A stretch of DNA of 32,718 nt from Alphaproteobacteria bacterium (GTDB taxonomy: Bacteria; Pseudomonadota; Alphaproteobacteria; Rhizobiales; Xanthobacteraceae). The DNA is taken from positions 1 to 32,718 of the forward strand of contig JAJPHK010000166.1 of the NCBI GenBank assembly GCA_021325315.1, read 5' to 3'. The notes beneath the pieces were generated by a model that saw only the letters and a list, made by a program, of their open reading frames with translations, was not told where the DNA came from and searched no databases. Both the position numbers and the translations under genes were made by a program. Positions 574 through 7,461 of the stretch are shown piece by piece (the stretch's first letter is position 1; every line of letters begins with the position of its first letter).

Positions 574-687
574 CGACAGCGCATTCCTTTTCTGCCCCGA
601 ACCGCACCTTGTTTAGAAAACCCGGATGAACTTGACCACAGCCCCGCATTCACAGTGCGTTCATGTAGTAGGGCGGAATTGCGGGTC

Positions 688-715
688 TTGCCGCCCCCAA
701 AAACCTCCCCATATC
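688..715 (+). promoter_or_regulatory. candidate RpoH (sigma-32) heat shock promoter
   Basis: CTTGCCG (688-694), a 13-base spacer and CCCCATAT (708-715) match the sigma-32 pattern CTTG(AAA)-N13-CCCATnT closely. Transcription would start near 721-723, exactly at the first hairpin of the hsp20 leader, giving a leader of about 87 bases. The fit to both boxes, the spacing and the heat shock gene downstream make this one of the better supported promoters in the window. It has been read by eye only. Confidence 0.65.
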
Positions 716-721
716 TTTCCT

Positions 722-811
722 GCGCCGGCCATTCGGCGGCGCAAAACCCAACGGACTCGGCCATTTGGCGGGTCTGCGACTGCATGTCGCTCAAATGGAG
801 GATATGTCATG
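722..811 (+). promoter_or_regulatory. ROSE-like RNA thermometer in hsp20 leader
   Basis: Three consecutive hairpins can be drawn. Hairpin I (722-744) pairs TGCGCC with GGCGCA, then a bulged G, then GCC/GGC around loop ATTC. Hairpin II (755-775) has the same design: GACTC with GGGTC (one G-U pair), a bulged G, and GCC/GGC around loop ATTT. Hairpin III pairs CATGTCGCT (783-791) with AGGATATG (799-806), leaving G789 bulged and closing a 7-base loop, so it buries part of the GGAGG ribosome binding site (797-801). TCGCT (787-791) fits the UYGCU signature that pairs with the ribosome binding site in ROSE elements of rhizobial small heat shock genes. Melting at high temperature would free translation. 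Confidence 0.65.
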
Positions 812-1267
812 GCAAGTTTCGATCTCAGCCCCCTTTACCGTTCTACCGTCGGTTTCGACCGCATCTTTTCGCTGCTCGATTCGTTCGGGCATGACGGCGG
901 CGTACCCGGTTATCCGCCCTACAATATCGAGCGCACCGGCGAGAATGCGTATCGCATCTCGGTCGCCGTTGCGGGCTTCACCGATAAGGAACTCGACATC
1001 CAGGTGAAGGAAAACGAGCTCACCATCCGCGGTGAGAAGAAATCCGAAGAGAAAAGGCAGGAAGGCGAAATGCTCTATCAGGGCATCGCGGCGCGTGCTT
1101 TCGAGCGCAAATTCCAGCTCGCCGACCATGTCGAGATCCGCGGCGCGAATCTCGAAAACGGTCTCCTGCATGTCGACCTCGTCCGCGAAATTCCGGAGAG
1201 CAAGAAGCCGCGCAAGATCGCGATCGGCAAGCAGGGCGCGCAGGTCATCGACGCGAAAGCCGCCTAA
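809..1267 (+). CDS. hsp20: small heat shock protein, Hsp20/IbpA family
   Basis: This 152-residue ATP-independent holdase chaperone has the usual length for bacterial class A small heat shock proteins. The alpha-crystallin domain spans roughly residues 35-135: it opens with PYNIERTGENAYRISVAVAGF, has the central ELTIRGEK strand, and ends with the conserved A-x-x-x-G-L-L position seen here as NLENGLLHVDL. A C-terminal RKIAIG supplies the I-x-I/V-type motif used in oligomer assembly. The start is the ATG at 809 because GGAGG lies 7 bases upstream and the sequence before it reads as leader; the frame stays open to 626 but has no family similarity there. Regulation is probably double: an RpoH promoter at 688-715 and a ROSE-like thermometer at 722-811. 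An intrinsic terminator follows. Confidence 0.93.
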   Translation: MASFDLSPLYRSTVGFDRIFSLLDSFGHDGGVPGYPPYNIERTGENAYRISVAVAGFTDKELDIQVKENELTIRGEKKSEEKRQEGEMLYQGIAARAFERKFQLADHVEIRGANLENGLLHVDLVREIPESKKPRKIAIGKQGAQVIDAKAA

Positions 1268-1291: not shown

Positions 1292-1320
1292 AAAGGCGCC
1301 CTCAAACGGGGCGCCTTTTT
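1292..1320 (+). terminator. intrinsic terminator after hsp20
   Basis: GGCGCCC (1295-1301) pairs with GGGCGCC (1309-1315) around a 7-base loop, extended by AAA/TTT, and is followed by a run of five T (1316-1320). It begins 25 bases past the hsp20 stop codon, and the converging minus-strand gene ends at 1338. On the minus strand the stem is followed by TTTCTCTTTT, so it may act in both directions. Confidence 0.85.
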
Positions 1321-1337: not shown

Positions 1338-2273
1338 TTATTCGAGCGGCTGAACCGGCGGAAACTCCGGCTTCTTCGGCTCGCTCGGAGGCGTGTCCGG
1401 CTTTTTCGCTTCCGCTTGCGCCTTGCTGTGCGCCTTTGCGATCGCCGCGGTCGTTTCCGGATCCTTCGGGCTCGTGAGCGGCGCATTCGCCTGCTTCGGC
1501 TCGTCTTTCTTCACCTCGTCCTTTTTCGTTTCCGCTTTCTTCGCGTCGTCCGGTTTCGGCTCTTCCTGTTTCGCGACATCGGCCTTCGGTTCTTCCTTCT
1601 TCGCGACATCGGCTTTCGGCGCTTCTTTTTTGCCGTCGTCTTTCTTCGCCGCGTCGATTTTCACGTCGCCCTGAATATTGGCGGGCCGCGCCTTCGGCAG
1701 CGGCACAACAGGCGGCTTTGCCGCGAGGCGTTTCGTCTCGGGCGTTGTCGAAAAGCGCGGCTCTGCCGCCAGCGGATAGGAAGAGCCAGGCCCCACGTTA
1801 CCCGGGGGCACCGGCCGGCCGCCATAATCCTCGTCGTCAGGCGCGACCGCGCCGCCCGGACCGCGATAGGCCGGCGCCTGATAGACTTCGCCGGCGCGCG
1901 GCGCGGACGGATAACCATCCGGCGAATAACCATCCCGGCCATAAGGCTCGCGCATCACATAACGCGGATCGGGCTCGTAGGGGCCAGCCTCATAGGCCGC
2001 AGGCCCTCGCAGCGCGCGCATGTCGACGACCCGTCCGCTGTGGGAGTCGATCACCACCCGCACGATCGTGCCTTCCCGGCCAATGCCGCGCACGATCCAT
2101 ACGTGTCCGCGCAGCCGCGGTTCGCTCGCCGGCTGCAAGCCCATATCCGCAACGGTACGCATCACCTCCCGCGGCGAAACGACGCCGTAATAGGGTTCGG
2201 CCGGATAGGGTTGAGCGGCTGCGGGGGTCGCCGCCATGAATGCAAATACCGCAAGGGAGCGCGACCAGTTCAT
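1338..2273 (-). CDS. secreted PepSY-like protein with Lys/Glu/Pro-rich repeat tail
   Basis: This 311-residue protein has a signal peptide (SLAVFAFMAATPAAAQ, cleavage near residue 20). Residues about 33-85 form the same small domain as the 169-573 protein: SPREVMRTVADMGL, then PRLRGHVWIVRG, then VRVVIDSHSGRVVDMRAL. Residues 95-185 are rich in Pro, Tyr and Gly. From about residue 200 the sequence is low complexity, built of imperfect 7-10 residue units such as KADVAKKEEP, KADVAKQEEP and KPDDAKKAE, and strongly charged. Such tails are often unstructured spacers that span the periplasm or contact peptidoglycan. ATG 2273 is the start; upstream is the long divergent region shared with gltB. No function can be assigned. 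The gene converges on hsp20. Confidence 0.75.
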   Translation of the reverse strand: MNWSRSLAVFAFMAATPAAAQPYPAEPYYGVVSPREVMRTVADMGLQPASEPRLRGHVWIVRGIGREGTIVRVVIDSHSGRVVDMRALRGPAAYEAGPYEPDPRYVMREPYGRDGYSPDGYPSAPRAGEVYQAPAYRGPGGAVAPDDEDYGGRPVPPGNVGPGSSYPLAAEPRFSTTPETKRLAAKPPVVPLPKARPANIQGDVKIDAAKKDDGKKEAPKADVAKKEEPKADVAKQEEPKPDDAKKAETKKDEVKKDEPKQANAPLTSPKDPETTAAIAKAHSKAQAEAKKPDTPPSEPKKPEFPPVQPLE

Positions 2274-2727
2274 TTTTACTCTCCGAGGAGCAGGGGTGAG
2301 TTCGCCGTTCCCCTCCAGTCGCGCCGGATTGCGGCGGCGTTAGGACGGCCTATCTGCAACATCATTGCGCGTCCGTGAGGAACCCGCCCCGGTTCTGTCG
2401 CTTATTCGTACATGCCCGCAATAAGCGGCAAGTTTTCCCCCGCCGATCCTTGTGTGTTTGGATTAATTCTGGCATGATATGACAGTGATGCTGTCCCATT
2501 TCCGGCGGGAAGGAAAATAAGGGCGCATCGCCAAAAAGCGCGGCAGAACTTCGAGACAACCGCGACGGCGAGATCGAAGCGGACTTGAGCGATACCGCAA
2601 GGGATCTCTCGCTCGATACGGCCGGAAGAAGCGGGCCGTCCGGAAACGGAAGGCCGGAAGCGAAGTGCGCCAACGAATGCGCGAAGAACGGAAACGAGAA
2701 TAAGTTTGATGAAGGGTGGCGATAAAA
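2274..2727. other. divergent intergenic region before gltB
   Basis: About 450 bases separate two divergent genes. I found no supportable gene here; open frames in it are short or are shadows. A weak promoter-like pair for gltB, TTGTGT (2450-2455) and CATGAT (2473-2478) with 17 bases between, sits in the least G+C-rich part. If it is used, the gltB transcript has a leader of about 240 bases. No sigma-54 site (GG-N10-GC type) with convincing flanks was seen. The promoter suggestion is low confidence. Confidence 0.3.
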
Positions 2728-5700
2728 ATGCAACAGGGGCGAGGCAACCGAACGGGGAAGCGCGACGACACGAAGGGCCGCGTGCGAAAAGCCGTTCCAT
2801 CCATGCCTGAAAACGAGTGGCAGCCGCCTGTCGCGTCCGGCCTGTTCGACCCGGCGAATGAAAAGGATTCCTGCGGCGTCGGTTTCATCGCCGACATCAA
2901 GGGCAGGAAGTCGCACCAGATCGTCGAAGACGGCCTCACGATTCTCCTGAACCTCGAGCATCGCGGCGCGGTCGGCGCCGATTCACGCGCCGGCGACGGC
3001 GCGGGCATTCTCGTGCAGATGCCGCACAAGTTCTTCGTCAAGGAAGCGAAGAAGCTCGGCATCGAACTTCCCGCGCAGGGCGAATACGCCGTCGGCGTCC
3101 TGTTCATGCCGCAGGACAGGGAATGGCGCGAAAAGATTCAGAAGGTTTACGAGGAGCAGGCGGCGCTTGAAGGCATGAAGGTGCTCGGCTGGCGCAACGT
3201 GCCGACCGACAACTCGACGCTCGGCGAGTCCGTGAAGCCGACCGAACCCTTCCACCAGCAAGTCTTCATCGCGCGCGCGCCGCACATCAAGGACGAGGAT
3301 ACGTTCGAGCGCCGGCTCTACATGCTGCGAAAGAGCATCTCCGGCGTGCTCTACGGCATCAAGGAGCGCATCAGCTCCGGCTACTATCCGGTCTCGGTCT
3401 CTTGCCGCACGGTCGTCTACAAGGGCATGTTCCTCGCCGACCAGCTCGGCACCTACTATCCCGATCTGCACGATCCGGATTTCGAGAGCGCGATCGCGCT
3501 CGTGCACCAACGCTTTTCGACGAACACCTTCCCGACCTGGTCGCTCGCGCATCCCTACCGGATGGTTTGCCACAACGGCGAGATCAACACGCTGCGCGGC
3601 AACAACAACTGGATGGCCGCGCGCCAGGCGACGGCGGACTCGCCCCTGTTCGGCAAGGACATCAACAAGCTCTGGCCGATTTCCTACGAAGGCCAGTCCG
3701 ACACCGCCTGCTTCGACAACGCGCTCGAATTTCTCGTGCAGGGCGGTTACGACCTGCCGCATGCGGTGATGATGCTGATTCCCGAAGCCTGGGCGGGCAA
3801 TCCGCTCATGGACGAGGATCGCCGCGCCTTCTACGAGTACAACGCGGCATTAATGGAGCCCTGGGACGGCCCGGCGGCGATCGCGTTCACCGACGGCCGC
3901 CAGATCGGCGCCACGCTCGATAGAAACGGGCTTCGCCCCGCGCGCTATCTCGTCACCCGCGATGGCCGCATCCTGATGGCATCGGAAATGGGCGTCTTGC
4001 CCATCGACGAGAAGGACATCGTGCAGAAGTGGCGCTTGCAGCCCGGCAAGATGCTCTTGGTCGACCTCGAACAGGGCCGTCTCGTGCCGGACGAGGAGAT
4101 CAAGGCGAAATACGCGAAGCTGCACCCCTACAAGCAGTGGCTGGAGAATACGCAGATTCAGCTCGAAAAGCTGCCGCCCGCGAAGGCGAGTGCGCCGATC
4201 TCGAACCTGTCGATCCTCGATCGTCAGCAGGCCTTCGGCTACACGCAGGAGGACATCAAGTTCCTGATGACGCCGATGGTGGCGCAGGGCGAGGAAGCCG
4301 TGGGCTCCATGGGCAACGACACGCCCATTTCGGCGCTCTCGGAGAAGCCCAAGCTCCTTTACACCTATTTCAAGCAGAACTTCGCGCAGGTCACGAACCC
4401 GCCGATCGATCCGATCCGCGAGGAGCTCGTGATGAGCCTCGTCTCGATCATCGGCCCGCGCCCGAACTTGTTCGATCTCGAAGGCCACTCGACCAGGAAG
4501 CGCCTCGAAGTCCATCAGCCGATTTTGACCGACGAGGATTTGGAGAAGATCCGCGAAATCGCCGACGTCGATTCCTACTTCCAGTCGAAGACTTTCGACA
4601 TCACTTACGCCGCCGAATCCGGTGCCGCCGGCATGAAGGCCGCGCTCGATGCGTTGCGCGACGGCGCAGAACAGGCCGTGCGCGACGGCGTCAACATCAT
4701 CATCCTTTCCGATCGCCATGTCGGCCCGGCGCGCATTCCGATTCCGGCGCTCCTGGCCACCGCCGCCGTGCATCATCATCTGATCCGCAAGGGGCTGCGC
4801 ACTTCCGTGGGCCTCGTCGTCGAAACCGGCGAAGCGCGCGAGGTGCATCATTTCGCCTGCCTCGCGGGTTACGGGGCGGAAGCGATCAACCCCTATCTCG
4901 CCTTCGAGACGCTCGTCGCGATCAAGGACGAGCTGCCGCAGAAGCTGGACGAGAAGGAAATTCTCAAGCGCTACATCAAGGCGGTCGACAAGGGACTCCT
5001 CAAGGTGATGTCCAAGATGGGCATCTCCACCTACCAGTCCTATTGCGGCGCGCAGATCTTCGACGCCGTCGGACTCTCCTCGGATTTCGTCGCGGAGTTC
5101 TTCGCCGGCACCGCGACGCGCATCGAGGGCGTCGGCCTCGACGGAGTCGCGAGCGAAGCCGTGCAGCGCCACCGCGACGCCTTCGGCGACTCGCCAATTT
5201 ACCGCGACATGCTCGATGTCGGCGGCGAGTACGCCTACCGCATCCGCGGCGAGGGCCATGTCTGGACTTCGGAAACCGTCGCCGCGCTTCAGCATGCCGT
5301 GCGCGGCAACAGCCAGGACAAGTACCGGGCCTTCGCGAAGATCGTCAACGATCAGTCGGAACGGCTTTTGACGATCCGCGGCCTGTTCGAGCTGCGCTCG
5401 GCGGAAGACGACGGCAGGAAACCCGTGCCGATCGAGGAAGTCGAGCCCGCGAAGAACATCGTCCGCCGTTTCTCGACGGGCGCCATGTCCTTCGGTTCGA
5501 TCTCGCGCGAGGCGCACACGACGCTTGCGATCGCCATGAACCGGATCGGCGGCAAGTCGAATACCGGCGAAGGCGGCGAGGAATCCGACCGCTTCAAGCC
5601 TCTGCCGAACGGCGATTCCATGCGCTCGGCGATCAAGCAAGTGGCTTCCGGCCGCTTCGGCGTCACTACGGAATATCTCGTCAATTCCGACATGATGCAG

Positions 5701-7461
5701 ATCAAGATGGCGCAGGGCGCGAAGCCCGGCGAAGGCGGCCAGCTCCCCGGCCACAAGGTCGATAAGATCATCGCCAAGGTGCGCCACTCGACGCCGGGCG
5801 TGGGGCTGATTTCGCCGCCGCCGCATCACGACATCTATTCGATCGAAGACCTCGCGCAATTGATCTTCGACCTCAAGAACGTGAACCCGGCGGGCGACGT
5901 TTCGGTGAAGCTCGTCTCCGAAGTGGGTGTGGGCACCGTCGCGGCGGGCGTCTCGAAGGCGCGCGCCGATCATGTCACGATCGCGGGTTTCGAGGGCGGC
6001 ACCGGCGCCTCTCCCCTCACCTCGATCAAGCACGCTGGCTCGCCCTGGGAGATTGGCCTTGCCGAAACGCACCAGACGCTGGTCGCGAACCGCTTGCGCA
6101 GCCGCATCGCCGTGCAGGTTGACGGCGGCATCCGCACCGGCCGCGACGTCGTCGTCGGCGCGCTGCTAGGCGCCGACGAATTCGGCTTTGCCACCGCGCC
6201 GCTCATTGCGGCGGGCTGCATCATGATGAGGAAGTGTCACCTCAACACCTGCCCTGTCGGCGTCGCGACGCAGGATCCGGTTCTCCGCAAGCGTTTCGTC
6301 GGCCAGCCGGAGCATGTAATCAACTACTTCTTCTTCGTCGCCGAGGAAGTACGCGAAATCATGGCGAAGCTCGGCTTCCGCACCTTCGACGAGATGATCG
6401 GCCAGATGCAGATGCTCGACCGCCGCAAGGTCGTCGCGCACGCGAAGTCGCAGGGCCTCGATTTTTCGAAACTGTTCACAAAGCCGAATGCTCCGAAGGG
6501 TGTCGGCATCTATCGCTCGGAGCCGCAGGATCACAAGATCGACAAGATCCTCGATCGCAAACTGATCGCGGAGGCGCAGGCGGCGCTCGACCGCGGCGCG
6601 CCGGTGAAGCTTACGACAACGATCAAGAACACCGACCGCACCGCGGGCGCGATGCTCTCCGGCGAAGTCGCCAAGCGCTACGGCCACGCCGGGCTTCCCG
6701 ACGACACGATCCACGTGAAGCTCAAGGGCACCGCCGGCCAGAGCTTTGGCGCGTTTCTCGCGCGCGGCGTCACATTCGAGCTCGACGGCGAAGGCAACGA
6801 TTATGTCGGCAAGGGCCTCTCCGGCGGCAAGCTCATCATCCGGCCGCCTGCCGATAGCGGCATCGTGCCGGAAGAGTCGATTATCGTCGGCAATACCGTG
6901 CTCTACGGCGCGATCGAGGGCGAAGCCTATTTCCGCGGCATCGCGGGCGAGCGCTTCGCCGTCAGGAACTCCGGCGCGCTCGTCGTCGTCGAAGGCACCG
7001 GCGATCACGGCTGCGAATACATGACCGGCGGCGTGGTGGCCGTGCTCGGCAGGACGGGCCGCAATTTCGCGGCCGGCATGTCCGGCGGCATCGCCTACGT
7101 GCTCGACGAGGACGGCACCTTCAAATCGCGCTGCAATCTTGCGATGGTGGAGCTTGAGCCTGTCCCCGAGGAAGAAGAAGTGAGCGAGAAGACCTATCAC
7201 CAGCTCCGCGACCTCACCGCGCATGGCCGCGTCGAGGTTATGAGCGATATGACCCGCCGCGACGCGCGCCGCCTGCACTGGATGATCTCGCAGCACGCGC
7301 GCTACACCGGCTCGAAGCGAGCGCAGGAAATCCTCTCGAATTGGAAGAGCTACCTGCCGAAATTCAAGAAAGTGATGCCGACCGAATACCGGCGCGCTCT
7401 TCTGGAGCTCAAAGCGCAAGAAGAGACTGAAAAACCTCGCCTTGCGGCGGCCGGAGCCTGA
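2728..7461 (+). CDS. gltB: glutamate synthase (NADPH) large subunit
   Basis: The alpha subunit of GOGAT releases ammonia from glutamine and adds it to 2-oxoglutarate, giving glutamate. At about 1577 residues it is full length. The N-terminal type-2 glutamine amidotransferase domain begins at the Cys of DSCGVGF (Cys49), the nucleophile exposed after propeptide removal. A central domain follows, then the FMN-binding synthase domain with the GEGGE and [11 protein letters not shown] stretches. The [3Fe-4S] ligands are C1164, C1170 and C1175 in [12 protein letters not shown]. The C-terminal GXGXG beta-helix contains [22 protein letters not shown] prefer ATG 2728, with AAGGGTGG 8 bases upstream, over GTG 2716 or ATG 2803, which lacks a ribosome binding site. 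gltD follows after 5 bases, so the two are surely cotranscribed. Confidence 0.97.

What the first reader, a model, noticed from the sequence alone, without database searches (positions are those of the whole stretch)
688..811. RpoH promoter feeding straight into a ROSE-like RNA thermometer for hsp20
The CTTG-N-CCCCATAT promoter would start transcription at the first base of hairpin I. Hairpins I and II share an unusual design (outer stem, bulged G, GCC/GGC, ATTC or ATTT loop), and hairpin III buries the ribosome site with a UYGCU-type strand and a bulged G. ROSE elements are established in rhizobial small heat shock genes. Combining sigma-32 transcription with a thermometer would give two layers of heat control, and the repeated hairpin design looks like a duplication.
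Basis: partly seen in the sequence, partly recalled or inferred. Interest (0 to 1): 0.62.

Follow-up and report, generated by a model that had tools for sequence, protein, structure and literature searches.

The report
ROSE RNA thermometer before small heat-shock gene
The start of this heat-shock messenger RNA folds into three hairpins, the last of which hides the ribosome-binding site until heat loosens it, and the gene is switched on by the heat-shock sigma factor; this is a well-supported new example of a known kind of RNA thermometer, not a new kind of regulator.

Summary
CTTG (687-690), 16 nt and CCCCATAT (707-714) precede three hairpins (721-743, 752-776, 782-807); the third pairs UCGCU (787-791, G789 bulged) with the Shine-Dalgarno GGAGGA (797-802) of an HSP20 gene (809-1267). 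Rfam ROSE (RF00435) matches full length, 34.5 bits, below its 45-bit gathering score. 58 orthologous leaders settle the structure: 94.1% of pair cells form, 20 of 29 pairs show compensatory change (0/500 shuffles), and a covariance model built from them finds E. coli ibpA and ibpB, absent from its training. The sigma-32 pattern is rare in this 2.94-Mb genome (7 sites, reversed control 0), lies upstream of dnaK and two sHSP genes, and recurs in 69 of 83 related leaders. This is a ROSE-type thermometer behind an RpoH promoter: a new member of a known kind; sigma-32 plus ROSE is published for P. putida ibpA. The hairpin "duplication" is not recent: the bulged-G cap is an old ROSE feature. New here: this conserved subgroup mostly falls below Rfam's cut-off, and the sHSP keeps the residues that let E. 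coli IbpA repress its own leader, so a third control layer is plausible. Thermometer function was not tested.

The parts
687..690 (+). sigma-32 (RpoH) -35 element CTTG
   Evidence: read directly; conserved in orthologues; one of 7 pattern sites in the genome
707..714 (+). sigma-32 -10 element CCCCATAT, 16 nt after CTTG
721..743 (+). hairpin I, bulged G (G727 or G728), CC/GG cap, loop ATTC; the inferred transcription start (about 721) lies at its foot
   Evidence: fold; changes on both sides in 7 of 9 pairs; start site inferred from distance to the -10 box, not mapped
752..776 (+). hairpin II, bulged G (G759 or G760), loop ATTT
   Evidence: fold; changes on both sides in 7 of 10 pairs
782..807 (+). 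hairpin III, the thermosensing hairpin: UCGCU (787-791) with bulged G789 pairs with the SD
   Evidence: fold; 94.8% of cells paired, 6 of 10 pairs with changes on both sides; G789 column G in 58 of 58
797..802 (+). Shine-Dalgarno GGAGGA, 798-802 paired in hairpin III
722..815 (+). Rfam ROSE (RF00435) full-length match, 34.5 bits (gathering score 45)
   Evidence: second best in the whole genome
809..1267 (+). small heat-shock protein gene, HSP20 / IbpA-like, 152 aa
   Evidence: Pfam PF00011 E 5.9e-22; NCBIfam IbpA model 178.9 bits, under its 212-bit equivalog cut-off
1292..1320 (+). probable intrinsic terminator (AAAGGCGCC / GGCGCCTTT then T run), so the transcript is probably monocistronic
   Evidence: read directly; not tested

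Best explanation
The leader of this hsp20 gene is a ROSE-type RNA thermometer made from an RpoH-dependent transcript. On heat shock, sigma-32 RNA polymerase starts near base 721 (inferred). The mRNA folds into two GC-rich hairpins, which probably act as stable folding units, and a third hairpin in which UCGCU pairs imperfectly with the SD around a bulged G. At growth temperature the SD is closed; heat loosens hairpin III first, and ribosomes start at 809. Shown here: promoter sequence and its conservation, secondary structure by covariation, relation to known ROSE elements, presence of rpoH. Inferred: start site, melting in the physiological range, translational control, RpoH dependence in vivo.
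For: Rfam ROSE full-length hit. Compensatory changes in 20 of 29 pairs over 58 leaders, far above shuffles and slid controls. RNAalifold, left free, finds the same three hairpins. The derived model R1 finds E. coli ibpA (25.8 bits) and ibpB (28.1 bits), both outside its training set, directly before their start codons. Of 74 R1 matches in 289 alphaproteobacterial genomes, 65 end within about 15 nt of an sHSP start listed. The promoter pattern has 7 sites in 2.94 Mb, 0 for the reversed control; they lie before dnaK, two sHSP genes, a Bax-inhibitor-like gene and three others. rpoH present, 380 bits. Sigma-32 transcription plus a ROSE-like thermometer is shown experimentally for P. putida ibpA (PMC3669281).
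Against: The Rfam score is below the curated cut-off. Nearest-neighbour folding predicts the SD under 10% open even at 60 C, more closed than the other elements tested; the method does not treat non-canonical ROSE pairing and also keeps E. coli ibpB about 80% closed at 60 C, so this counts only weakly. No transcript or protein data. The promoter shuffles kept mononucleotide content only, and the orthologues are related, so counts are not independent.
Confidence: 0.92

Rival explanations
1. The leader is a permanent repressor or a stability element: three strong hairpins reduce translation or protect the mRNA, without a heat switch in the physiological range; heat control is transcriptional only.
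For: Folding leaves the SD closed to 60 C, and hairpin III is still -8.45 kcal/mol at 42 C.
Against: The SD-pairing strand keeps the ROSE motif U(U/C)GCU with the bulged G in 58 of 58 leaders, the motif that marks studied ROSE thermometers (PMC3669281). Folding is a poor judge: it keeps E. coli ibpB about 80% closed at 60 C too.
Confidence: 0.06
2. Transcription comes from a housekeeping sigma-70-type promoter and the ROSE element carries the whole heat response, as I recall for Bradyrhizobium hspA-type genes.
For: Leaders that score above Rfam's cut-off mostly lack the strict sigma-32 pattern (7 of 30) and show CTTGAAA with TCTAAT-like boxes.
Against: This leader and its orthologues have the strict pattern in 69 of 83; the 7 genome sites include dnaK.
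Confidence: 0.07
3. The paired arms belong to a DNA-level operator or terminator-like element rather than an RNA structure.
For: Inverted repeats in a promoter-proximal region can be operators; ROSE itself was first taken for a protein-binding site (PMC4166951).
Against: Pairs with a G-U partner or changes on both sides keep pairing, the bulged Gs are conserved and asymmetric, and the third hairpin covers the SD.
Confidence: 0.02

Closest known systems
Rfam RF00435 ROSE (sHSP thermometers)
   Same: Full-length alignment of all 94 positions; hairpin I with a bulged G and CC/GG cap; final hairpin with UYGCU and a bulged G over the SD; directly before an sHSP gene
   Different: 34.5 bits, below the 45-bit cut-off; hairpin II itself carries a bulged G; sigma-32-type promoter box, which most above-cut-off leaders tested lack
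ROSE-like thermometers of gammaproteobacterial ibpA (E. coli, P. putida)
   Same: Sigma-32 promoter plus SD-covering U(U/C)GCU hairpin in P. putida (PMC3669281); E. coli ibpA and ibpB found by model R1 and with the same bulged-G hairpins
   Different: P. putida has two hairpins, this leader three; sequence differs
ROSE elements of class A sHSP genes in M. loti, S. meliloti and B. japonicum
   Same: ROSE before class A sHSP genes; rpoH dependence together with a ROSE element reported for S. meliloti; B. japonicum hspH homologue also under ROSE (PMC3989490)
   Different: Reported from transcriptomes and sequence inspection; the exact orthology with this gene was not tested

Membership tests
ROSE / ROSE-like RNA thermometer | Lies in the 5' leader immediately before a small heat-shock gene | tested here: met
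   Element 721-807, HSP20 CDS from 809
ROSE / ROSE-like RNA thermometer | 3'-proximal hairpin with U(U/C)GCU paired imperfectly with the SD | tested here: met
   UCGCU 787-791 with GGAGGA 797-802; motif columns nearly invariant in 58 leaders
ROSE / ROSE-like RNA thermometer | Conserved bulged G opposite the SD | tested here: met
   G789; the column is G in 58 of 58
ROSE / ROSE-like RNA thermometer | Two to four hairpins, the upstream ones GC-rich | tested here: met
   Three hairpins supported by covariation
ROSE / ROSE-like RNA thermometer | Score above the Rfam RF00435 gathering threshold (45 bits) | tested here: not met
   34.5 bits, full length, E 0.0007. This is a curator's reporting cut-off rather than a biological feature; model R1 links the group to known members
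ROSE / ROSE-like RNA thermometer | SD opens with temperature and translation rises | not testable with these tools
   Folding stays closed to 60 C and is uninformative for a known element too
RpoH (sigma-32) promoter | CTTG and CCCCATNT-type boxes at E. coli-like spacing | tested here: met
   CTTG-N16-CCCCATAT; fits NNCTTGAA-N(13-18)-CNCCATAT quoted in PMC3669281 except for the AA after CTTG
RpoH (sigma-32) promoter | Shared with other heat-shock genes of the genome; rpoH present | tested here: met
   7 sites including dnaK and two sHSP genes; rpoH hit over cut-off
RpoH (sigma-32) promoter | Transcript depends on RpoH | not testable with these tools
   needs an rpoH mutant

The most novel reading that the evidence does not exclude
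The leader carries three layers of control: sigma-32 transcription, SD melting, and repression by the sHSP binding its own leader, as shown for E. coli IbpA (PMC10474464). The bulged-G / CC-GG caps of hairpins I and II, conserved from this lineage to E. coli ibpA and ibpB, would be part of what the protein recognises. The window protein keeps the counterparts of IbpA Y34, R93, R97 and K98; Y34, R93 and R97 are kept in 58 of 58 orthologues. The link between caps and binding is my inference; no tool result shows it.
Probability: 0.15. Interest if true: 0.6.

Novelty: new member of a known kind. Interest (0 to 1): 0.33.

Why it matters
It gives strong comparative evidence for a ROSE subgroup that standard Rfam annotation mostly misses, tied to a sigma-32 promoter over much of one alphaproteobacterial family. 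It also shows that the bulged G of the upstream hairpins, usually treated as scaffold, is nearly as constant as the SD-pairing motif in alpha- and gammaproteobacteria. [quoted passage not shown]

Tried and rejected
Rfam at gathering threshold: no hit anywhere in the window; the E-value search on the leader gave the ROSE match, plus two chance-level matches that were dismissed. Thermal folding as a test of function: uninformative, because E. coli ibpB stays mostly closed as well; the E. coli ibpA figure is not usable because the script took too long a stretch as SD. Recent duplication of hairpin I into II: rejected, since the common core is in all relatives and in E. coli, while loops and outer stems differ even in the same-genus genome. 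Founding papers on ROSE (PMC96696) and rhizobial sHSPs (PMC103535): not held.

Full report
What is there. The sequence has CTTG at 687-690, a 16-nt spacer and CCCCATAT at 707-714, followed by a leader of about 88 nt and an ATG at 809. The reading frame 809-1267 encodes a 152-aa HSP20 protein (Pfam PF00011, E 5.9e-22), closest among NCBIfam models to IbpA (178.9 bits; equivalog cut-off 212). The minimum-energy fold has hairpin I (721-743), hairpin II (752-776) and hairpin III (782-807). In III, UCGCU (787-791) faces the Shine-Dalgarno GGAGGA (797-802), with G789 bulged.

Is it ROSE? Rfam at its gathering threshold reports nothing in the window. A sensitive search of 640-860 gives RF00435 ROSE at 722-815 over all 94 model positions, 34.5 bits, E 0.0007, against a gathering score of 45. 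In the whole genome it is the second-best place, after the leader of another sHSP gene on contig C31 (40.8 bits). In 199 related genomes 83 have a ROSE match, 35 above the cut-off. Many of the sub-threshold matches end exactly at the start of the orthologue of this gene, so the low score is a property of the subgroup.

Structure by comparison. I aligned 58 leaders of orthologues that have the promoter pattern and a -10 box at most 100 nt from the ATG. With the structure taken from the window fold, 94.1% of pair cells are standard pairs; 20 of 29 pairs carry changes on both sides, 123 cells in all (shuffled mean 34.7; 0 of 500 shuffles as high on any measure), and sliding the partner by 1 to 3 columns drops pairing to 37-47%. 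Since the structure came from one of these sequences, the slid controls lean in its favour; the compensatory changes are the stronger evidence. RNAalifold without guidance finds the same three hairpins. The bulged G of hairpin III is G in 58 of 58.

Link to tested thermometers. A covariance model from this alignment (R1) was run on loci outside its training set. It hits the leaders of E. coli ibpA (25.8 bits, ending at the start codon) and ibpB (28.1 bits). In 289 alphaproteobacterial genomes 72 have an R1 match at E up to 0.01; of 74 matches 65 lie directly before an sHSP reading frame, and the other nine were not resolved, because the protein list was cut.

The promoter. CTTG-N(13-20)-CC(C/T)AN(A/C/T)T occurs in 67 of 83 orthologous upstream regions against a shuffled mean of 0.34; the -10 box ends between 83 and 134 nt before the ATG. 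In the own genome CTTG-N(16-18)-CCYAYAT has 7 sites, with 0 for the reversed control. Reading the genes that follow, from their sequence: dnaK, two sHSP genes, a Bax-inhibitor-1-like protein, a GatB/YqeY-like protein, an L,D-transpeptidase-like protein and a small membrane protein (the non-sHSP names are by inspection, not by profile search). RpoH is present (380 bits). Leaders scoring above the Rfam cut-off have the strict box in only 7 of 30, against 69 of 83 here. The relatedness of the sequences makes a p-value meaningless, but the contrast is large.

Hairpin design and the duplication claim. The bulged G in hairpins I and II is not peculiar to this window. The bulge columns are G in 57 and 54 of 58 leaders. 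In 38 held-out matches the hairpin I bulge column is G in 34 of 36 filled rows, including E. coli ibpA (GGACGC-G-CC-loop-GG-GUGUUC) and ibpB (AUGCUC-G-CC-loop-GG-GAGCAU). The Rfam consensus already has this bulge in hairpin I. The loops ATTC and ATTT resemble each other here, but the same-genus relative has different loops. A recent duplication is therefore not supported; an ancient one cannot be tested.

Mechanism. The best reading is transcription by RpoH holoenzyme from about 721, followed by translational control through melting of hairpin III. The two steps together are published for P. putida ibpA (PMC3669281), and a ROSE element on rpoH-dependent sHSP genes is noted for S. meliloti (PMC3989490). 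Nothing here shows melting: ViennaRNA keeps the SD closed to 60 C and keeps E. coli ibpB mostly closed too.

A possible third layer. E. coli IbpA represses its own translation by binding the ibpA 5' UTR; R93, R97, K98 and an aromatic residue at position 34 are needed (PMC10474464). The window protein has all four counterparts (GYPPYN; GIAARAFERK), while its ROSE-linked paralogues on C36 and C31 lack one and two of them. Y34, R93 and R97 are kept in 58 of 58 orthologues tested; position 98 is R or K in 28. The paper itself suggests conservation in alphaproteobacteria. That the bulged-G caps take part is speculation.

Verdict. It is a new member of a known kind. The parts worth a specialist's time are the sub-threshold sigma-32-linked subgroup, the conserved bulged-G caps, and the residues pointing to autorepression.

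Noticed in passing
L213 (own genome C36, promoter at C36:51730-51757): A second sHSP gene has the same sigma-32 pattern and a leader with a bulged-G hairpin and an AAAGUC-G-CUU / GAGGACUUU hairpin over its SD: a ROSE-like element that the Rfam model did not list in this genome.
   Followed up: partly
L038, 1501-1594 and the reading frame after it: The strongest ROSE match (87.8 bits) lies directly before an RpoH-like sigma factor gene whose first residues (MRTYDITPLRRS) resemble the start of an sHSP, as if an sHSP-rpoH pair had fused by deletion.
   Followed up: partly
L059, L060, L061, L062, L066, frames directly after the ROSE match: In five genomes a ROSE element above the Rfam cut-off precedes a 120-137 aa protein that is not an sHSP, with a shared core like EKRA(I/L)L-x-x-WASD-x-x-A(V/I)E-x-x-P-x-LR; the first 75 residues of three of them have no Pfam match. 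In two of the five an HSP20-like frame follows.
   Followed up: partly
L035 (own genome C31:3043-3129, minus strand): Another ROSE element (40.8 bits, under the cut-off) before a third sHSP gene, with a CTTGAAA-N-TCTAACT box upstream.
   Followed up: partly
window 1338-2273 (-) and 2716-7461 (+): Neighbours: a frame with a long K/E/P/A-rich tail, and a large frame that by inspection looks like a glutamate synthase large subunit; neither seems tied to the thermometer.
   Followed up: no
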